This document shows, in pieces, positions 4,832 through 15,288 of a stretch of DNA of 64,000 nucleotides. A program made the translations under genes and the position numbers. Below the pieces are notes generated by a model. That model was given only the letters and a program-made list of their open reading frames with translations, did not search any database and was not told where the DNA came from. This DNA is from Methanogenium organophilum (GTDB lineage: Archaea; Halobacteriota; Methanomicrobia; Methanomicrobiales; Methanomicrobiaceae): the NCBI RefSeq assembly GCF_026684035.1, contig NZ_CP113361.1:1798001-1862000 (forward strand). Direction: 5' to 3'. Each line of letters starts with the position of its first letter. The stretch's first letter is position 1.

Positions 4832-5140
4832 TCACAACGGGAGTGCAAAAGAATCGATGAATTCAATGATGCGGCGGGCGTTGCAGAATTCCGGACCGCA
4901 GGCGGAAAAGACGCGGTGCAAATCCGGTTACAACGCCATCGCAGGGGGTATAACGGTGCACAAGGCGAAGGGGTCCGGCGCCACGCTGCCCTTACCCGGC
5001 ATCCTGGATCATACGTCCTTTCGCCGGTCGTCGGTGAAGGGGCGGCGGTCTACTATTCACGAGAGCAGAGGGCAAGTCTCTGTGAAGCATGCTATGCCCG
5101 GCTGGTCCGGGAATGGAATATGAGCGAGGGAGTGGTATGA
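4832..5140 (+). pseudogene. Probable gene remnant with C-terminal cysteine motif
   Basis: An open stretch of about 102 codons follows a TGA at 4829-4831 and ends at TGA 5138-5140. No ATG lies near its start; the first possible initiator is GTG at 4916. The encoded C-terminus reads SLCEACYARLVREWNMSEGVV, a CxxC followed by an amphipathic helix, resembling the tail of a small zinc-binding protein. The same tail is repeated at 6771-6846, where a TAG interrupts it. I cannot name the family. The lack of a start and the degenerate second copy make a truncated relic the best reading, though a short expressed protein from 4916 is possible. Confidence 0.35.
5065..5140 (+). repeat. Direct repeat, left copy (island module)
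   Basis: About 76 bases that recur at 6771-6846. The last 57 bases (5084-5140) differ at three positions from 6790-6846, and the upstream 19 bases are about two-thirds identical. The repeats bracket the two-gene cyclase-like module. In this copy the reading frame of the cysteine-motif tail is intact. Confidence 0.85.
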
Positions 5141-5254: not shown

Positions 5255-6376
5255 TCATTTGAGAGAGGAAGAGGAGAGAGTAGAAAAAGATCCTTCAAAG
5301 CCTTCAATTTGTGCTGAAGAATCATTAGGAAAATATCTTTTACAACAATGGTTGTGGTATTCAGCGAGCCATTGATATTTACGGTAAGTTCCCGCATCGT
5401 CCTTGAATTTGTCTAGATTCGCTGAAATGTGATCGCGGTGTTGATGAAGTAGGGTTATTGCCTCTGGATAATATGAGTTCTGTGAAGCAGGAGACCCCCC
5501 ATCTATACGTATTTGCATCTGCACCATGTCTTCATTAAAATAGTAAAGAATGTACAGGTAGTTAATAAACCATTGACCATCCTGGTCTACCAGCAAAATG
5601 TCATAAAATGGGCTATGTTCAGGTCCTCCATACCATGGGAAATAATGACTAACTCTTGCTATTGCAGATTCATTAAGAATCACGCGTGGATATACTGCCT
5701 TTTTTTCATACTCTTCAGCATGAAGCAAAACAGGGCTAAATACCAGAATTTCATCGGCATAAGACCTTTCGACAAAAATAACACCGCGTGTGAAATATCC
5801 CTCCAACGCTAGACTAAATTGGTATTGTGCGATTTCTCCAAGAGTTTCACCAAAATCGGATTCTCCATATCCATGTGTTTCCAATTCATTGACAAACAGC
5901 AGATTGTCTGTATATACTCTTACATGAGAGATCTTTATCAGGTTCAAACTGTGATTTCGTTTAGTTGTTGATTGCACCTGATTGAATGCATTTTTCAAAG
6001 CACGATTGTATTGATTGAGAATTTCATCAAACTTTGCAGAATCCTTCTGAGCTTCTTGAATTAAGGACTTAAATCCAAGAATATCGACATGAGCAACGAT
6101 TGATTCTTCACTGGAAATCGTTGCAATTCCTTTTATTTTTTCAATAAAACTATGTCTAGAAATATTTCCCTGTTTTAATGCGGATTCAATGATTGGACCC
6201 GGAATTATTTCGCAATTTGGCAGAGTAATTGTCTGGCATATATAATCTAATAGATACCATTCTGATTTTAGGGTGATATATCGTTCATTTTTTGATTCAA
6301 TGGAATATCCAAACTCTCTCAGGAGAATCAATAGATCCTCACACTCCAAATCACAGATTCCCTTAGAGAATGTCAC
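5255..6376 (-). CDS. HicA-like domain fused to a class III cyclase-like domain
   Basis: A 373-residue protein. Residues about 12-79 resemble the HicA mRNA-interferase fold: LLREFGYSIES, a strand pair, then QTITLPNC and IIESALKQGNISRHSF, matching the end of HicA (ITVP...GTLRSILKQAGIS..EF). The HicA catalytic histidine position appears to hold E31 (SKNERYITL), so RNase activity is doubtful. Residues about 93-240 resemble class III nucleotide cyclases: a metal-binding Asp in HVDILGFKSL (D98), a second in VYTDNLLFV (D157), then RGVIFVERSYADE and AVYPRVIL, as in uncharacterised cyclase-like proteins. The C-terminal about 130 residues are unassigned. The gene is AT-rich and coupled by a 4-base overlap to the 100-residue gene upstream. 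A conflict or signalling role is inference; product nucleotide unknown. Confidence 0.6.
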   Translation of the reverse strand: MTFSKGICDLECEDLLILLREFGYSIESKNERYITLKSEWYLLDYICQTITLPNCEIIPGPIIESALKQGNISRHSFIEKIKGIATISSEESIVAHVDILGFKSLIQEAQKDSAKFDEILNQYNRALKNAFNQVQSTTKRNHSLNLIKISHVRVYTDNLLFVNELETHGYGESDFGETLGEIAQYQFSLALEGYFTRGVIFVERSYADEILVFSPVLLHAEEYEKKAVYPRVILNESAIARVSHYFPWYGGPEHSPFYDILLVDQDGQWFINYLYILYYFNEDMVQMQIRIDGGSPASQNSYYPEAITLLHQHRDHISANLDKFKDDAGTYRKYQWLAEYHNHCCKRYFPNDSSAQIEGFEGSFSTLSSSSLK

Positions 6377-6716: not shown

Positions 6717-6770
6717 GAAATGTCCCCGTGTCGATTTTAAATTCACTAAACAATTTACTTCATTCCAAAA

Positions 6771-6846
6771 GCAGCGGACGAGTATCTACGAAGCGTGCTA
6801 TGCCCGGCTGGTCCGGGAATAGAATATGAGCGAGGGAGTGGTGTGA
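6771..6846 (+). repeat. Direct repeat, right copy (island module)
   Basis: Second copy of the 5065-5140 repeat. G-to-A at the tryptophan codon creates TAG within the shared cysteine-motif tail, so this copy is certainly non-coding. Weak similarity continues about 20 bases downstream of both copies. No transposase or integrase lies between the copies. Confidence 0.85.
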
Positions 6847-6891: not shown

Positions 6892-7347
6892 TTATGTCCT
6901 GCACCCCTCTTCCATCATACTCGGATCAAACCGAAGTTCAATCTCGTGTGCATTCCCTATTGCGGCCCGCTGGTGTATATCGATAAGCCGGAGGTCGGAG
7001 AGTCTCCGAAGCCAGTTACGAAAAGCGGTATAGGAAATGTCCCGTTTCTCTTTGAATGACTCATAAAGGATGTGGGAAGTAAGGGATGCCGTTGGGCTAC
7101 CCTGTTTCATTTGAATAATATGGGAGAGCAGCCGTTCCGGACCCGGTTTCAGCCCTTCTATGAGAAGGGTGAGGTGAGCGCCGCGTACGGTCTCAAACGC
7201 GGTGGTGACGTCCTTTTCTATGACTTCTGTCCGGGCACCCCGTTCGGCATTGAGATCTGAATTTTTCAGGATGTCGATGCCGACCCGGAGGTCCCCCCCT
7301 TCCAGATCCCGGATGCGGTCCTTGAAGTCTTCATCAGTTTCTTTCAT
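6892..7347 (-). pseudogene. Orc1/Cdc6 replication initiator, C-terminal fragment
   Basis: The 151 residues match only the C-terminal third of archaeal Orc1/Cdc6 initiators: the sensor-2 region EGGDLRVGIDILKNS, the linker helix around EKDVTTAFETV, and a winged-helix domain (LTSHILYESF, AFRNWLRRLSDLRLIDI). The AAA+ core with Walker A and B motifs, about 250 residues, is missing, and a TGA lies six codons upstream of the ATG, so no full-length gene is present. A free-standing winged-helix origin-binding protein cannot be excluded because the fragment itself is intact. In context, next to a TBP paralogue and a frameshifted gene, it is best read as the remains of the replication gene of an integrated element. 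Confidence 0.7.
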
Positions 7348-7502
7348 CTCCCCGAGCGTCCGTCAGATCCATTTCACATCGCGGTGCGTCTCGATGATTT
7401 TTGCGGTTAAATCATCATTTCTTTTGTTCAGATTCTCCGTATTTTCTTTGCATAGTCTCTGCGGTTAAGGGAGACTGATATTACTTTTGATAATATTGTT
7501 GA

Positions 7503-8050
7503 GTGTCAGTCATAACCCGGGAAGCGGCTGGCAGGAGTGTGTGTATCATCGCAGACTTTATCCAGACTACCAACACCAAGAGTGCGGTGCGGGACCTGAC
7601 CGTCCCCATCGCCAATATCACTACCTTCGATGCCCTCGTGCAGGACATCATCGACACTAACCCCTTCGGCTGCACTGCGTATGTCGAGAGTGGGGTGACC
7701 ATTGACCCGATTGTCCGTTCCCAGGAGCGGTATGATGCCAAGATCGTATACGAGAACCTCGAAGCCGACACGGTAGGCGACGTCTCAGTGCAGGTCAATT
7801 CAGTGGCTGCCTTCGGCACCGCTGCCACCCATGTGATGGCCGACGACGACCTTGCCACCGCTATCGGCGGGACCCAGTCCGCGACACCGCAAAGGACACC
7901 TTCTCCTGCAAGCTGAAGTGTCATGACGCAAATGGCGAGACGTACTATGTGACGCTCTCCCGCACCAAGGTCCGCATTTCATCTTATGCAGATGATGCCA
8001 TTCGGACTACGATTGAGACCTGGGCTGATGGAAAGCCTGAACTTTCCTGA
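7503..8050 (+). pseudogene. Frameshifted gene of unknown function
   Basis: A GTG at 7503 opens a frame that reads in good codon usage to about 7870 and then loses it. The continuation, RDTAKDTFSCKLKCHDANG through TWADGKPELS to TGA 8048-8050, lies in another frame. One missing G in the run near 7868-7874 would join them into a protein of about 182 residues. The sequence is rich in beta-strand patterns (VTIDPIVRSQERYDAKIV, YYVTLSRTKVRIS) with no signal peptide or known motif. Such a composition is seen in structural or surface proteins of archaeal elements, but I cannot name a family. A strong hairpin terminator follows directly, which supports a once-real transcription unit. Confidence 0.6.
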
Positions 8051-8070
8051 ACCTCCAAACGAACACCAGA

Positions 8071-8097
8071 AACAGGGGCACTGCCACCCCTGTTTTT
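8071..8097 (+). terminator. Hairpin-plus-T-tract terminator
   Basis: ACAGGGG and CCCCTGT form a seven-base-pair stem around an eight-base loop, followed by five T residues. It sits 20 bases after the frameshifted gene's stop. Archaea usually need only the T tract, so this bacterial-style terminator is a little unusual. Confidence 0.65.
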
Positions 8098-8326
8098 GAC
8101 TGAATTCCGGGCAGAATGAGCTTTTTTTCCGTCCTCTTTTGACCTCGAAAAAGGGCCGTATTTTTGCGCTTTATTTCAGAAAAGAACGAATATTTGTGAA
8201 TTTCTGAGCAGGTGCTATTGACGGATATTTCAGGAGGGTGTGCAGCCTGTCTCCGGCTGAGAACGGCCCACTCCGGCCGTCTGTGTGGACGTTTTTTCCG
8301 GGGTGCGGGCCTGTTGGGGGGCCTAT

Positions 8327-8566
8327 TTAAGCGTTACTTAACCCCGGCGTGGGGATTTTTCCTAATAGTGCGAGAATTGTAATCCGCAGCTGCAGGAGGA
8401 AGCAAATTGCCATTCCTATCCACAGTGCATAGTAGAGGAGTGCATAATCGATGCTTGAAAGGGAATTGATGATAGCAACCAGGAGAGCTGTGATGGCGAA
8501 ACGAAATCCCCATTCTGCGGGGTAGAGGAGTTCACGCCAGGTGTTAGTCATAATCTTCTCTTTCAC
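8327..8566 (-). CDS. Small two-helix membrane protein
   Basis: Up to 79 residues from a GTG at 8566, or 74 from an ATG at 8551. Two hydrophobic segments are visible (FAITALLVAIINSL and ALLYYALWIGMAICFLL), the second followed by LRITILALLGKIPTPG, so it may form two or three membrane passes. There is no recognised family. It stands alone between the terminator-bearing pseudogene and the TBP paralogue. Its size and hydrophobicity are compatible with a holin-like or toxin-like peptide of a mobile element, but that is only a possibility. Confidence 0.45.
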   Translation of the reverse strand: MKEKIMTNTWRELLYPAEWGFRFAITALLVAIINSLSSIDYALLYYALWIGMAICFLLQLRITILALLGKIPTPGLSNA

Positions 8567-8774
8567 GGTGCTTTATTTAATATATGGGGATGAGGAGGGT
8601 GAATGTATGGTACAGAGAGAATGTATTGCTTATAACGATCTATTGGATTGTAGCCTTGTTCGATAAAGATCATGCATTGATGATTTCCCTAACTTATTAT
8701 TGCAAAGGGGACGATATTCACAGAGCATTTTCTTTCATGATGAATCTGCAAAATCAGTTAAATCCAGGTATTAT

Positions 8775-9296
8775 ATGAGAAAATTAGAGATTGTCAATGT
8801 GGTAGCAACGGGAACATTAACCGAGTCTCTTGATTTAGAAAAATTGCATCAAAATTTGCCCGGAACTGTGAAATCAACATCGCATTGGTTAAAATATCGA
8901 TTGCCTGAAAATAATAAATATATCGCATTCTATAAGTCAGGAAAGTTTCTCCTTACAGGAAAAGATGTTTTGGACAAACAGGATGAACTTTGTGCCAGAA
9001 TTCTCGATATTCTTCGCAAAGCTGATGTCGCATATACACTTGACCACCTCACGATAAACAATATAGTATGCAAAACGAGTGTTAAATTGAACAAATCCCT
9101 TGATGTGATAATTGAGCAGGCTGATCCTAAGAAAGGGAGCTACGAACCCGAACAATTTCCAGGATTGATCTATAAGGATTGGGGTGTTAGTTTTCTTTTG
9201 TTTTCCAGTGGTAGCGTGATTATTACAGGAGCCAAAAAAATCGAAGAGTCACAAAATGGATTCAATAATTTTGTTCAATTCCTATCTAAAATCTAA
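8775..9296 (+). CDS. Divergent TATA-binding protein paralogue
   Basis: A 173-residue member of the TBP family made of two saddle repeats. Repeat 1 opens with IVNVVATGTL and LDLEKL; repeat 2 contains the signature YEPEQFPGLIYK and LLFSSGSVIITGAK. Repeat 1 has lost its PEQFPG motif: SHWLKYR occupies the place, so W38 replaces the first DNA-kinking phenylalanine, while F52 is kept and repeat 2 keeps F128 and F143. The acidic C-terminal tail common in archaeal TBPs is absent. The ATG at 8775 puts the TBP fold at residue 4. The gene is AT-rich in an island with an Orc1/Cdc6 fragment, so it is probably an acquired alternative TBP that could redirect transcription. Confidence 0.85.
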   Translation: MRKLEIVNVVATGTLTESLDLEKLHQNLPGTVKSTSHWLKYRLPENNKYIAFYKSGKFLLTGKDVLDKQDELCARILDILRKADVAYTLDHLTINNIVCKTSVKLNKSLDVIIEQADPKKGSYEPEQFPGLIYKDWGVSFLLFSSGSVIITGAKKIEESQNGFNNFVQFLSKI

Positions 9297-9377
9297 TGCA
9301 CCAAACGCTCACGGCCGCTGCGGCGTCCGTCAGCTCCTTGTGGCACCGCCTCCGCGTCACTGCTGCGCAGGCACGCT
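9296..9377 (+). repeat. Inverted repeat, left arm
   Basis: An 82-base GC-rich arm starting at the TBP stop codon. It is about 90% identical to the reverse complement of 13533-13613, with the first 23 bases identical, then about eight differences including one single-base gap. The two arms bound a 4.3-kb block holding the DUF2290, helicase and GIY-YIG genes. The arm is much richer in G+C than the adjoining TBP and DUF2290 genes. Confidence 0.85.
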
Positions 9378-9420
9378 TCGGCGGTGAAAATCCACATTAT
9401 TCGTTCAAAATTAATCAAAT

Positions 9421-10152
9421 TTATTGAGTTGGGATATTTAAATGAGGCAAAAATTCATAATTATCGCTTATGATTTTTTGAAAGCTGGGATTATTGATTT
9501 TTCGTAATTGTCCCTTATTTTTTGGTTTTCCATCTTGATCAAGTCTCATTGAGTGATATTCTCTTGGATAAAAATGAGCGATTATAAATTCAATAAATTG
9601 ACGCGGAGATGGGACCACCGTCAATGGAATTCGTGCATCACCAAATAATCCAATATGCATGTGGCATGAGTGATGGAGGGGGCTTTCTGTTTCTTCATTT
9701 GAAAAATCAATTCTAAGCCAAGGAACAATGAAGTCCTCGTAATAAAAGGAGTTTTGAGAAAAACTATCCGAATCTATTAAGCTATCCATTATGGTGTCAT
9801 GAGTGAACGTGAGTTCCGGATCTTCTCCCTCTTGGTCCCATTTTTCTCCACTTCTTGGGATTGGGGTATTTCCATAATATGCAAGTCTGGCTTCTATGAG
9901 TGTCGAATTATCTTTTTCAAACTTATAGAATATCTGTATGAATGAACCGTCTTCAATTATTTGAAAAGTATATTGCTTTTTCATTTCTAATAAATCTAAA
10001 TCATTTTTGTGCATAATATGAGGCAATATTAATGGAGTGTGATTAAGCCATGTTATACTATTATTCTCGCGTATATATTGAGTATTTACGAGAATATCTG
10101 ACCATTCACTGTATGTGGCAACTAAGGAACTCATTACATCACTGACATTCAT
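9421..10152 (-). CDS. DUF2290-family protein
   Basis: A 243-residue soluble protein. The C-terminal half shows the DUF2290 pattern: PLHHSCHMHIG with spaced histidines, then GDARIPLTVVPSPRQFIEFIIAHFYP. The N-terminal half is beta-rich. The function of the family is not established. The gene overlaps the upstream helicase gene by 4 bases (ATGA), so the two form one translationally coupled unit and probably one complex. The histidine cluster could be a metal or catalytic site. A role in antiviral defence is inferred from the helicase partner and the island context. Codon use is AT-rich, unlike the core genes of this window. Confidence 0.7.
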   Translation of the reverse strand: MNVSDVMSSLVATYSEWSDILVNTQYIRENNSITWLNHTPLILPHIMHKNDLDLLEMKKQYTFQIIEDGSFIQIFYKFEKDNSTLIEARLAYYGNTPIPRSGEKWDQEGEDPELTFTHDTIMDSLIDSDSFSQNSFYYEDFIVPWLRIDFSNEETESPLHHSCHMHIGLFGDARIPLTVVPSPRQFIEFIIAHFYPREYHSMRLDQDGKPKNKGQLRKINNPSFQKIISDNYEFLPHLNIPTQ

Positions 10153-12320
10153 TCCTTCTTAGCCTCTGAAATCTGTGATATTAGCTTTTCAACTAATTCT
10201 GGCTGTTTTTTAACTAGTTCTGCAAATACTTTTGGGTTAACGTTTGTTAGATCTGATAGTGATCCAGTTACTTTTTGGATTTCTCGACGTCTTCTCGTTG
10301 TTTCAGCGTCCAAATTTCGAATTGAATTCAAATCAGGAAATGTAAATTTGAATCTTGGCTGATCTTTTAGGATTTTATTAATTTCATTTTCAGCATCTAA
10401 CATGCCTGGGCCGACGCCGGTTATTCTGACCCAAGCTTTAGAACGTGAAATCGCGGTAAAAGCACGATTGCGGTTTTGTAACTCCTCAACATAATCATAG
10501 AGGGCCTCGAAACTGAATATATATACGATGTATGATTCGTTTCCTTTCGCGCGAAAAACAGTTGATAATGTTACATTGCCAACTTCTCCAAAAGCACTTA
10601 CGTCAGATCCCAAACCAGGAATGTTCGAACGAATATTCAGGTCAATTAATTTCTTCTGAAGAGGAGGCAAATATTGCTTCATCTTGAGGGCATCCAAACA
10701 AATGACCACTATATGTTCTGGCAATACATTTTCAACCTCTATATCACGTTTTATAGAATCAGCGATCCAATCCAATTCTTCATTTTTATCTTTAAAGGTT
10801 TTTGTCACGATTTCTGGATTTGATCCATTGTATATTCTGGAAATTGGAGTTGGACTATTCTCGGGAGGTCGATAAATGGTAATTTCATTACCTTCGACCA
10901 ACTCTCCCTCTTCAACAACATACCCAAATGAATCCCAAGAGTCTTTTGTGCTTAGGATTTGAATCGGTCTATCCGGACTGTACAATCCAAGTCCAATGGC
11001 ATGGGCCAGCATTAATATTTTATGAGGACATCGGTAGGAACGATGGAGTACAAAATCTTTTTCGATACCCCCTGGATACGGTTCTCCTTCAAGTGATACT
11101 AGATCATTCCCATTTTTATCTGCACCGAATAGTTTTTTTGGAGATGGAATTTGCTCTCCAAATAGACTTTGAAGTTCATCATAAACCCAATATATGCAAT
11201 GGTTGGGTTTTGATAGTTTGTAGAGAAGTTTAAAGTATTCGGAATGAAAATCCTGTGCTTCGTCTACCATGATATAATCATAGTATGGTTCAATATCCTT
11301 ATTCAAAAGTTGTGTACAGCAGGCTGTGAATGGATGGTCTCTGTCTAATATACGAGCTTCTTTGAGCTGAAGTGGTGCTATCCCATGTCGCATACAAGCA
11401 TCAAAATACACTCCTGGACGCGAATAGCCACCCCATGCGTGGCGGATATGCAGATTATCCCAATCTGGATCAATTTCGCTGTGGAACCTGTAAAATTTTA
11501 TAATAAGCGCACGGACTTGGTTGTAAAGGCTTTGAGTATTGAATGTAAATAAGATTTTTTTCTCAGGATATCTTAGATGAATATTGGCTGCCTTCATTGC
11601 CAGTAATACGGTTTTCCCAGTTCCGGCTAGACCACGTATTCTTTGAGGACCTGGTGCTATTTGCAGGGCAGCCTTGGCCTGTTCTTCATCGAGCAAAGCA
11701 ATATATCTATCAATATATTTAATGGCATCACCAAGTTTATCCGCATCTTTATGGATTAGACCTAAACCTTTCGTTAATGGATTTATGCCCTGTGCTATGG
11801 ATTTTAAGGTTCGCCATTCTTCTTCTTTCAATTCTGATTCTAATGGGTTTATTATGGGATTTAGATCTTTATCTTTCCAGATAATTATTTCATCATTTAA
11901 TTGATCTGGAAACTTCTCTTCAAATTGAGCTTTATAAATGAGTGGCAATGCTATTGCATTGACTGTCCTAAGTCTATGTCTTAAAACACGGTGCTTATCA
12001 AATTTTGATTGAAGAGTAACCGCATAGTCTTCTGCCTCATATAATGGCGAATCAATCTCTTTTCCATTTATTTTCCAAAAATTTTCATCAATTGATTCAA
12101 TATCTTCCAGTTGCCAAGGGAGGCAGCAAATTATTATTGGATTGTATTTTTTTGCAATGAGTGTAAAATCTGGTGATATTATGGACTCTGTCATAAATAC
12201 AGGGTGTTTGTAGTAACAGATGCCCTCTGTGTCGGGGAATTCCCCCTCAATCCAAGACCAGATCCTTTTTGCTGGTTCATCTGTAGCATACTCTGGGAGA
12301 GTGACATTAAGTTCTATCAT
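10149..12320 (-). CDS. UvrD/Rep-like SF1 helicase with degenerate nuclease-like N-terminus
   Basis: A 723-residue superfamily 1 DNA helicase. Walker A is RGLAGTGKTVLL (about residues 229-239), Walker B is VDEAQD (352-357), a Q/R-rich motif follows at VLHRSYRCPHKIL, and the C-terminal motifs STVFRAKGNESYIVYIF and NRAFTAISRSKAWV are the UvrD motifs V/VI region. The N-terminal about 150 residues include SPDFTLIAKKYNPIIICCLPW, which resembles the core of a NERD/PD-(D/E)xK nuclease, but the E-x-K pair is not present, so nuclease activity is doubtful. The last 80 residues form helices. It is coupled to the DUF2290 gene. Predicted to act on foreign DNA as part of a two-gene defence module (inference). 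Confidence 0.8.
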   Translation of the reverse strand: MIELNVTLPEYATDEPAKRIWSWIEGEFPDTEGICYYKHPVFMTESIISPDFTLIAKKYNPIIICCLPWQLEDIESIDENFWKINGKEIDSPLYEAEDYAVTLQSKFDKHRVLRHRLRTVNAIALPLIYKAQFEEKFPDQLNDEIIIWKDKDLNPIINPLESELKEEEWRTLKSIAQGINPLTKGLGLIHKDADKLGDAIKYIDRYIALLDEEQAKAALQIAPGPQRIRGLAGTGKTVLLAMKAANIHLRYPEKKILFTFNTQSLYNQVRALIIKFYRFHSEIDPDWDNLHIRHAWGGYSRPGVYFDACMRHGIAPLQLKEARILDRDHPFTACCTQLLNKDIEPYYDYIMVDEAQDFHSEYFKLLYKLSKPNHCIYWVYDELQSLFGEQIPSPKKLFGADKNGNDLVSLEGEPYPGGIEKDFVLHRSYRCPHKILMLAHAIGLGLYSPDRPIQILSTKDSWDSFGYVVEEGELVEGNEITIYRPPENSPTPISRIYNGSNPEIVTKTFKDKNEELDWIADSIKRDIEVENVLPEHIVVICLDALKMKQYLPPLQKKLIDLNIRSNIPGLGSDVSAFGEVGNVTLSTVFRAKGNESYIVYIFSFEALYDYVEELQNRNRAFTAISRSKAWVRITGVGPGMLDAENEINKILKDQPRFKFTFPDLNSIRNLDAETTRRRREIQKVTGSLSDLTNVNPKVFAELVKKQPELVEKLISQISEAKKE

Positions 12321-12600
12321 ATATCTTAACCCATTTTTCCTTCAATCAAGATGATAATAATCGAAGAGATTTTATCTTTTGAATTAATTGAATATTAGTT
12401 ACTACCATACATAACAAATATCCTTTATTATATGCATTTTCCCGAAAGGTCATTTCAATTCTTAAGAGAAGATATAGAGACACCATTCGGTCGAGAAAAT
12501 AGTACAACTAGATTAATGAAATCAAGATTGGAATGATTCTGCATAATGGGACTTCTGAAATGGGGAAGAAGGTTTTCTACTGAATCAATAGTTCTCTTAC
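12321..12600. other. AT-rich gap between helicase and GIY-YIG genes
   Basis: No gene is seen. On the minus strand a TATA-like ATGCATATAATAAAGG lies near 12425-12440, about 110 bases before the helicase ATG, and may be the helicase promoter. Nothing else is recognisable. Confidence 0.35.
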
Positions 12601-13475
12601 TCAGAACTGCCGTTTCGGTGGCCCGCCCGCACGCTCTACCCAGGCACCAATAAGTCATTCTCCCATTCAAGACGCTGGTAGTGTTCCGTCATATCCGAAC
12701 AGAGCACATGCGATACCCGGACCTCTTCGTCCCGGAATGTCTTTACATGAGAGGCCATGCGTGAACGGAGACGCTTCGTCTCGCCGATATAGATCACTTC
12801 TCCAGACGGATTTATCATCATATAAAGGGCCGGCCATTCGGAAAATTTTGTCAGTGATGCTTTCTGCAAGGGCAGCGGCGGCTCCCAATGCAGGCCCATC
12901 CAGTCTCCTTCATTAGGGCTGCCGATATCGTGGAGAGGAACGGATGAAGGCCCGGCAGCGGGATTGATCTGTCCTTCCGGCAGCCGTCCGCCACGTATGC
13001 CCGCTGAACGGTTTGTTGACCGGGAATAGTGCGAGTGAAACCGTCCATGATTGCAGAGGGTGGATGAGCCATGTTCACACCGGTATTTCCATAGAAGGTA
13101 TGCCTCCTGCCCCAACCGGTGCCGTCTTCCTTCGTCCCCTCCGTGGAATGGAAGCGGAGCCACCGAGACTTCGAAGTCGCATCCTTCTGCATCCCGCCAT
13201 GTCCAGAGGGACTGGGCGGCGGTGTGGGGATCGTTCCACGGCATTTCATCGGATGAATTGTAGAAGACCCGGAGTTCCCGCATCCTCTGTCGGAGTGATC
13301 GGCCCGTCTGGCCGATGTATGCAAGGATCTGTCCGTCTACGGGTCGGACCCGGTAGATACCAGGTTGTGTTGGGATATGTGATAATTCACGGTGTTTGTT
13401 ATTCAGGGGAACCCATCTGGTCCAGGAGAGGTTTCCCCAGGACGATGCAAGGTAGGAAGGAGTGTTCGGTTTCAT
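12601..13475 (-). pseudogene. Tandem GIY-YIG domain protein, frameshifted near its end
   Basis: Two GIY-YIG nuclease-like domains. The first, residues about 38-66, has PGIYRVRPVDGQ and LAYIGQTGRSLRQRM; the second, about 220-250, has PALYMMINPSGEVIYIGETKRLRSRM. The frame in use stops after ENDLLVPG at 12636, but loss of one A near 12650 explains this: in the neighbouring frame the sequence continues IGAWVERAGGPPKRQF to TGA at 12601-12603, a natural C-terminus for this family. I take the ATG at 13475; the longer frame to 13613 runs through an inverted-repeat arm and is probably not translated. Such proteins are uncharacterised and may cleave DNA. Truncation by six or seven residues plus loss of the tail may or may not inactivate it. 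Confidence 0.7.
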
Positions 13476-13532
13476 GGCTGGTTTCGATGATGAGTAGTTT
13501 ATTGTGATAGGGGAAAAATGGCCCGCCGCAGG

Positions 13533-13613
13533 AGCGTGCCTGCGAAGCAGTGACGCGGAGGCGGCGCCACAGGAGTTGACGGACGCGAACGCGGCCGTGA
13601 GCGTTTGGTGCAT
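13533..13613 (-). repeat. Inverted repeat, right arm
   Basis: Reverse complement of the 9296-9377 arm, read from 13613 leftwards. It lies 58 bases upstream of the GIY-YIG start. No transposase gene or flanking target-site duplication is evident. Confidence 0.85.
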
Positions 13614-13760
13614 CCGTACACTGATGCATGAACAGGGGAGGCCGTTGCCCCGAAGGGTGAACGGCCGTTTGGATGAAAAAGGAAAGGATGGGGTTGTATT
13701 TGTAATCCTAATGGAAGAAAACGATATTTATGTGTTCTTTTAAGTTTCATTCGGATGCCG

Positions 13761-13881: not shown

Positions 13882-15288
13882 ATGGAAGATTACTTAGATA
13901 TATTTCAAAATCTGCTCTTGGAAATTTCTCAATTGGTAGGTGATTCTATTGAGATTGCTCAACGAGGAGGTGAGATTGAACCAGAATATCACAATTACAT
14001 ATACACCATAGTGGACGAATTTAATTATGATAGTAGTGGATTTTCTTCTTATTCACAGCATAAGGAAGAACGAACAGAAGAAGAGTGGCATACAGCCCAA
14101 AATAAGATCTATCAGAATATTTTAGATTCAGAGAAGTTTTCATCACTAAAATTTCAACTTGATTCTCTTACTGACGAAACGTTTGATGTGTCAGGTAATT
14201 TCGGCACCTTTCTTTTAAAATTAATTTCTGCATATTTTGAAAATCAAGAAGACTACAAAAAACTAGCTCAAAATATTATCTCTGCATTTATCCGTGAATA
14301 TTCCGGCAATCCGATCAAATATTGCTCTAAAGTCAAACTATATGGCATTGTTGTCGAACTTAATTCATTACCCTTAAGTGATCAAATTATTTTACGAAAA
14401 CCACAAAAGAAAGACTTTGAATCATGCATTCCAGAAGGGCATTCAGAATCTCCAAAAATGAATTGGCAGGATCCATCTGCATTTTTAGAGATAGTTATAG
14501 AGGGAACAAATCAACGTCAATTACAAGATGAGATTAGGAAATCGATAATTCTAATACAGCTTTACAAAGTTGGGAGTGCAGAAATTCTCGAATACCAGTT
14601 AAACTCAGAATCATTCGGTTTTCCAGTGTCTGGAACTATTGGTAGTATTAGCCAGGGCGGACATCTTATAAACAGTCACATATCAGAACAGGACATTATC
14701 CCTATGCAGAATTTTTGGAATGCAGCCTCTCCATTAATACCAATCCATATGGTTTTGCTCGATAAAAATATCTCAGATCACATATCAATTGCCTACCAAC
14801 ATTACAATAACGCCTTATTGCAAAGGGGAATCATCGAACAAAGAGTTGCAAGCGCCATTATGGGATTGGAAGCTTTGTTTTTAAAAGGAAATGATCGAAG
14901 CGAACTCTCCTATCGGCTTGCAGTTAGAATAAGCAAAATATCAACAATATTCAATAGAGACCCAATAGATATTCGACAGTTGGTGAAAGAGTCCTACAAT
15001 ATTAGAAGCACCTATCTTCACGGAGACCAACTCAGTTCGAAAGAAAAGTCGAAATTAGAGAAAAAAGTAGGGAAAAATATGCAAAATATCCTCCTTTCAG
15101 TATTAGATTGCTTAAGAATGTCAATCATTCTCAACATGGAATTAAAGAAGGATGAAATAGGGAAAGAGGATTTCATTGATCTAATCGATGATTCTCTTGT
15201 TGATGATGATGCTAACAAAAAAGTTATTGACATTCTAAGAAATGAAAATTTCATCGCTATTATGGATGGCACAAATAATTGTCAATAG
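13882..15288 (+). CDS. HEPN-domain (ApeA-like) putative ribonuclease
   Basis: A 468-residue soluble protein. The C-terminal part resembles the Apea-like HEPN domain: a helix with SAIMGLEALFLKGND, then SELSYRLAVRISKI, and the catalytic Rx4H motif R375-S-T-Y-L-H380 (NIRSTYLHG). HEPN domains with this motif are metal-independent RNases found in abortive-infection proteins. The N-terminal 250 residues are not recognised; they are acidic and mixed alpha/beta and may sense an invader. The gene is AT-rich, stands alone on the plus strand and lies directly before tRNA-Leu, at the island's right boundary. The defence role is inference. The HEPN assignment is well supported by motif and surrounding helices. 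Confidence 0.72.
   Translation: MEDYLDIFQNLLLEISQLVGDSIEIAQRGGEIEPEYHNYIYTIVDEFNYDSSGFSSYSQHKEERTEEEWHTAQNKIYQNILDSEKFSSLKFQLDSLTDETFDVSGNFGTFLLKLISAYFENQEDYKKLAQNIISAFIREYSGNPIKYCSKVKLYGIVVELNSLPLSDQIILRKPQKKDFESCIPEGHSESPKMNWQDPSAFLEIVIEGTNQRQLQDEIRKSIILIQLYKVGSAEILEYQLNSESFGFPVSGTIGSISQGGHLINSHISEQDIIPMQNFWNAASPLIPIHMVLLDKNISDHISIAYQHYNNALLQRGIIEQRVASAIMGLEALFLKGNDRSELSYRLAVRISKISTIFNRDPIDIRQLVKESYNIRSTYLHGDQLSSKEKSKLEKKVGKNMQNILLSVLDCLRMSIILNMELKKDEIGKEDFIDLIDDSLVDDDANKKVIDILRNENFIAIMDGTNNCQ

What the first reader, a model, noticed from the sequence alone, without database searches (positions are those of the whole stretch)
9296..13613. 4.3-kb module bounded by ~80-bp inverted repeats carrying helicase, DUF2290 and GIY-YIG genes
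The arms 9296-9377 and 13533-13613 are about 90% identical in inverse orientation and GC-rich against adjoining AT-rich genes. Within lie a translationally coupled SF1 helicase/DUF2290 pair and a GIY-YIG gene, all on the minus strand. No transposase is present. The arms could be transposon ends moved in trans, recombination sites, or repeat elements that captured the module. The bounded cargo suggests transfer as a unit.
Basis: partly seen in the sequence, partly recalled or inferred. Interest (0 to 1): 0.62.

Follow-up and report, generated by a model that had tools for sequence, protein, structure and literature searches.

The report
Transposase-free mobile defence cassette in Methanogenium
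In this methanogenic archaeon a small block of anti-virus genes sits between two mirror-image hairpin-rich repeats, and the same bounded block turns up at a different chromosomal place in another species of the genus, so it has apparently moved between species as one unit although it carries no recognisable gene for moving itself.

Summary
Arms at 9296-9384 (+) and 13526-13613 (-) are about 90% identical inverted repeats, the only two strong copies in the 2.65-Mb genome. The right arm continues outward to about 13682, so a full arm is ~155-160 bp with three hairpins; the left arm lacks the outer hairpin. Between the arms lie the known anti-phage pair Helicase+DUF2290 and a double GIY-YIG gene.

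Methanogenium marinum carries the whole unit, arms included, at another chromosomal site. Synonymous divergence is 0.11-0.65 inside the unit against 0.9-1.3 for host genes, which supports horizontal transfer of an arm-to-arm unit. A MAG of the genus has a near-empty orthologous site: a 38-bp palindrome matching the fused outer ends of the two arms. Single shortened arms occur at three further loci. No arm was found in 34 other genera of the order.

Best reading: a non-autonomous composite cassette bounded by palindromic repeats, working like MIC or TIME-bounded cassettes. Movement by an enzyme in trans is inferred: no transposase, target duplication or matching autonomous element was found. 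Recombination between shared repeats remains a real rival. The cargo is known; the repeat family and its pairing with a defence cargo seem undescribed (limited literature search).

The parts
9296..9384 (+). Left arm: hairpins II and III of the repeat; outer hairpin I is missing, cut off at the stop codon of the TBP gene
9421..10152 (-). DUF2290 gene, 243 aa, partner of the helicase in the Helicase+DUF2290 anti-phage system
   Evidence: Pfam PF10053, PADLOC DUF2290
10149..12320 (-). UvrD-like SF1 helicase, 723 aa; overlaps the DUF2290 start by ATGA
   Evidence: Pfam UvrD, PADLOC PDLC03002 'Helicase' E 6e-133
12636..13472 (-). GIY-YIG gene, two GIY-YIG-like halves; likely start at about 13472, inside the arms; C-terminus frameshifted relative to all four relatives
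   Evidence: Pfam PF01541 and weak DUF7508; alignment; sequence comparison
13526..13613 (-). Right arm, part shared with the left arm (hairpins II and III)
13614..13682 (-). Outer part of the right arm: linker and hairpin I (TTCG loop), the outer end of the unit

Best explanation
The block is a non-autonomous mobile defence cassette. Two inverted copies of a Methanogenium-specific, hairpin-rich repeat (full length ~155-160 bp, three imperfect palindromes) bracket a Helicase+DUF2290 anti-phage pair and a double GIY-YIG gene. The arm-to-arm unit was transferred horizontally between Methanogenium lineages and sits at different chromosomal sites in two species (shown by comparison). Copies decay by deletion, leaving shortened single arms and, at the orthologous site of one genome, a 38-bp palindrome matching the two fused outer arm ends (sequences shown; the loss event is inferred). 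The arms most likely act as end sites for an enzyme supplied in trans that moves everything between them, as happens with MIC or TIME-bounded cassettes (inferred; enzyme not found). In the cell the cargo would act as anti-virus defence: the helicase senses or processes invading DNA, DUF2290 is its partner or effector, and the GIY-YIG protein is an accessory nuclease (inferred from family).
For: Homology between window and M. marinum is co-terminal with the arms. The sites are non-orthologous: window near tRNA-Leu(CAA), M. marinum near tRNA-Leu(UAA) at 88-93 kb, while its tRNA-Leu(CAA) locus is at 1.916 Mb. dS is 0.11 / 0.25 / 0.65 for the three cargo genes against 0.91-1.29 for five host genes. 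The near-empty orthologous site in G005 is a palindrome best explained by joined arm ends (score 83 against 62 and 70 for single arms). Shortened solo arms at G001, G005 and G006. Arms restricted to this genus in 150 genomes of the order, 1 of 35 genera. Hairpins show three pairs changed on both sides. Cargo is foreign in GC and rare in the phylum: DUF2290 in 2 of 295 genomes. Cargo matches a described anti-phage system.
Against: No transposase, no target-site duplication at the only site with both ends complete, and no autonomous element with the same ends in the family. Only two complete units are known. The divergence gradient along the unit (left arm 94%, right arm 82%) shows more than one exchange event, which simple transposition does not give. 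Both units lie on the same side of a copy of the same small membrane gene, which suggests recombination or targeting at a repeat already present.
Confidence: 0.6

Rival explanations
1. The arms are resident intergenic hairpin repeats (REP-like) that only supply homology. The defence block spread by ordinary homologous recombination after DNA uptake, with crossovers in or near the repeats; no dedicated transposition is involved.
For: Solo arms exist next to the small membrane gene in G005 and G006, and both units lie beside a copy of that gene. Mosaic divergence along the unit. Both window arms share changes that both M. marinum arms lack, so sequence is exchanged between arms. No target duplication.
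Against: A crossover in a single resident repeat does not by itself place full-length inverted arms at both ends. The solo arms are shorter than the arms of the unit and look like deletion products of full arms. Flanks beyond the arms are not shared between the two sites apart from a short tRNA and small-gene match.
Confidence: 0.25
2. The GIY-YIG protein is the mobility enzyme: it cuts the arm hairpins and moves the unit, so the element is autonomous.
For: It is the only nuclease-type gene other than the defence pair inside the arms in both genomes, and it lies next to the complete arm.
Against: Relatives of this gene (45-71% identical) in other genomes have no arms or comparable flanking inverted repeats and two of them lie beside DUF6884 genes. 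The window copy is frameshifted near its end.
Confidence: 0.07
3. The inverted arms are an inversion switch: recombination between them flips the block to turn the genes on or off.
For: The arms are in the right geometry, and sequence exchange between arms within a genome is visible.
Against: Same orientation relative to the small membrane gene in both genomes; no invertase found in or beside the block; the block as a whole is found at two different sites.
Confidence: 0.04

Closest known systems
Mobile insertion cassettes (MIC; MIC231 of Bacillus cereus; mic with qnrD, PMC3913671)
   Same: Passenger genes between two inverted repeats, no transposase inside
   Different: MIC ends match those of a known insertion sequence and usually have a target duplication; here neither was found, and the ends are far longer (~155 bp) and full of hairpins
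TIMEs and TIME-bounded composite transposons (Pseudomonas, PMC4133298)
   Same: Short transposase-free repeats that can also occur alone and bracket unrelated genes, giving a composite unit
   Different: TIMEs have 38-bp Tn3-family ends and make 5-6-bp duplications; the arms here show no such ends or duplication
PATEs and SMRs of Haloquadratum walsbyi (PMC3119063)
   Same: Archaeal, transposase-free, palindromic ends; core deletion leaves terminal-only remnants, like the 38-bp palindrome in G005; SMR ends match no known transposon and make no duplication
   Different: PATEs have no terminal inverted repeats; SMRs are ~80-110 bp and carry no genes
Helicase+DUF2290 anti-phage system (PMC9122126)
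   Same: Both protein families in one operon, matching PADLOC models
   Different: The described systems lie in P4-like satellites and prophage hotspots of bacteria; here the pair is in an archaeon, between inverted repeats, with a GIY-YIG gene

Membership tests
Mobile insertion cassette (MIC) | Passenger genes bracketed by inverted repeats with no transposase gene | tested here: met
Mobile insertion cassette (MIC) | Target-site duplication (usual, not obligatory) | tested here: not met
   None seen at the M. marinum unit, the only one with both ends complete (read); the window's left end is truncated
Mobile insertion cassette (MIC) | Ends match an insertion sequence whose transposase can act in trans | tested here: not met
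   No autonomous element with these ends in 28 genomes of the family; it could exist in an unsequenced strain
TIME-bounded composite transposon | 38-bp Tn3-family terminal repeats and 5-6-bp duplication | tested here: not met
   No duplication seen; the arms have a different anatomy, ~155 bp with three hairpins. The Tn3 end sequence itself was not compared
PATE | No terminal inverted repeats; palindromes near the ends | tested here: not met
   Long inverted repeats are present, although each holds palindromes
Helicase+DUF2290 anti-phage system | Adjacent helicase and DUF2290 genes of the described families | tested here: met
   PADLOC PDLC03002 and PDLC02998
Helicase+DUF2290 anti-phage system | Protects against phage | not testable with these tools
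   Reported for a bacterial system against T7; not shown for this one

The most novel reading that the evidence does not exclude
A new class of archaeal transposase-free mobile element whose ends are long inverted clusters of hairpins, moved by an unidentified enzyme without target duplication, and which carries anti-virus defence genes between species.
Probability: 0.2. Interest if true: 0.7.

Novelty: new variant of a known kind. Interest (0 to 1): 0.45.

Why it matters
It gives a concrete, precisely bounded example of how a defence system can travel among methanogens without a recognisable transposase, integrase, plasmid or virus of its own. The near-empty site and the arm remnants make the ends testable, and the repeat can be used to look for further defence cassettes in Methanomicrobiales.

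Tried and rejected
GIY-YIG as marker of the element: relatives in other genomes have no arms or comparable flanking inverted repeats. Arms as coding sequence: each can be read as an ORF starting MHQTLTAA, but small insertions or deletions shift the frame between arms and the GIY-YIG relatives start inside, so rejected. Arms as a known RNA: no Rfam match; the only hit in the window is a tRNA. Arms on viruses: no exact pattern match in viral contigs; DUF2290 not found in the phage collection. Shared sequence beyond the arm ends: weak and not convincing against shuffles, except for the orthologous G005 flank and two copies within M. marinum. DUF2290 fold: AlphaFold2 with three sequences failed (pLDDT 36.7), so no fold search was made; no solved structure matches it by sequence. 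The first script for the fused-end prediction cut the left arm too short and was redone. One script failed on a syntax error and one structure string had the wrong length; both were redone.

Full report
Place. The window is bases 1,798,001-1,862,000 of a single-contig 2.65-Mb archaeal genome. The genus is therefore Methanogenium; the species of the window was not identified.

Observation. The arms are real: 9296-9384 and 13526-13613, 81 identities, 6 mismatches, 3 gaps, the only long inverted repeat in 64 kb. In the own genome BLASTN finds only these two copies; the covariance model adds one weak partial match. A full arm has three imperfect palindromes and folds better than shuffles (z about -2.8). 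Across six copies three base pairs changed on both sides, against 0.7 expected from shuffles: a modest sign that the hairpins are kept.

Cargo. The helicase and DUF2290 genes match the PADLOC models of the Helicase+DUF2290 system, reported to inhibit phage T7 in bacteria (PMC9122126). The third gene has a Pfam GIY-YIG domain in its second half and a GIY-YIG-like motif in its first half that relatives conserve. In the window its C-terminus is changed by a frameshift relative to all four relatives aligned. DUF2290 was found in 2 of 295 genomes of the phylum. The other one, in a different family of the order, has a helicase+DUF2290 pair (helicase 60% identical) with no arms and no GIY-YIG gene. 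So the arms and the GIY-YIG gene are not part of the defence pair as such.

Transfer as a unit. In M. marinum the homology starts and stops with the arms: window 9296-13681 equals L009 10731-15122, and the left arm there is complete out to 10657. The two sites are not orthologous. The window's unit is near tRNA-Leu(CAA); the M. marinum unit is near tRNA-Leu(UAA) at 88-93 kb, and its tRNA-Leu(CAA) locus, with the host genes that follow it, is at 1.916 Mb. Synonymous divergence is 0.11 for DUF2290, 0.25 for the helicase and 0.65 for the GIY-YIG gene, against 0.91-1.29 for five host genes beside the window's tRNA (NG86). All three are below host level, which points to horizontal transfer after the species separated. 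The gradient along the unit (left arm 94%, right arm 82%) shows that it is a mosaic, so more than one exchange probably took place.

Remnants. In G005, contig C2, the gene pair that flanks the window's unit (a small membrane gene and the homologue of 13882-15288) is separated by a short stretch holding a near-perfect palindrome of about 38 bp, CCAAACGGCCGTTCACCCTTTGGGGCAACGGCCGTTTGG. Its right flank is orthologous to the window's (alignment score 67, best of 300 shuffles 45). A sequence made by joining the left arm's outer end to the right arm's outer end at their shared AACGGCC fits it better (83) than either arm alone (62, 70). I read this as an excision or deletion remnant; a pre-insertion target cannot be excluded. 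Single arms in G006 and G001 match full arms minus about 42-45 bp, and one in G005 (contig C15) ends inside the second hairpin. Related repeats in one genome of another genus (three copies) share mainly the second and third hairpin region and carry no such cargo.

Mechanism. Shown: bounded unit, two sites, lower divergence than host genes, remnants, and exchange of sequence between the two arms of a genome (both window arms share a one-base gap and a T-to-G difference absent from both M. marinum arms). Inferred: that the arms are end sites for a trans-acting enzyme. No enzyme, target duplication or autonomous partner was found. Homologous recombination through repeats already present at the target is the strongest rival; it explains the mosaic and the link with the small membrane gene, but not easily the inverted full-length arms at both places.

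Known kinds. It works like a mobile insertion cassette or a TIME-bounded composite (PMC3913671, PMC4133298). I do not file it as a MIC, because target duplication and a matching insertion sequence were looked for and not found. The remnants resemble terminal-only PATEs of Haloquadratum, but PATEs lack terminal inverted repeats (PMC3119063). Two literature searches found no description of this repeat in Methanogenium or of a defence cassette of this type; that library is incomplete. I therefore rate it a new variant of a known kind, of moderate interest.

Noticed in passing
window 8700-9296 (+): A TATA-binding-protein gene, AT-rich (36% GC), whose stop codon overlaps the first base of the truncated left arm (TAATGCACC); its arrival may have removed the outer hairpin of that arm.
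   Followed up: partly
window about 12640-12660: The window's GIY-YIG gene has a small frameshift near its 3' end relative to four relatives, replacing the last ~20 residues.
   Followed up: partly
window 8214-8343: Intergenic repeat with dozens of dispersed matches in other Methanogenium genomes, most in G003.
   Followed up: no
window 8372-8551 (-): Small membrane-protein gene (~66 aa) with several copies in the genus and pseudogenes in G003; in several loci the outer end of an arm lies just upstream of it.
   Followed up: partly
window about 7294-8100: Stretch with several copies per genome in G002, G005 and G006; its ORF 7503-7916 matches no Pfam family.
   Followed up: no
window 5064-5140 and 6770-6846: Two direct copies of a 77-bp sequence, 88% identical.
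   Followed up: no
L031 6146-7490; L034 551-1876: Relatives of the GIY-YIG gene lie beside a DUF6884 gene in two genomes, without arms; in L034 the GIY-YIG gene is interrupted by stop codons. Possibly a separate defence gene pair.
   Followed up: partly
L010 about 6022-6165 and 9005-9150; L070 7690-7830: Three related ~130-150-bp GC-rich repeats in a genome of another genus of the family, all solo and in the same orientation in their contig.
   Followed up: partly
window 13882-15288 (+): 468-aa gene between the unit and tRNA-Leu with no Pfam match; conserved at 85% DNA identity in G005 beside the near-empty site.
   Followed up: no
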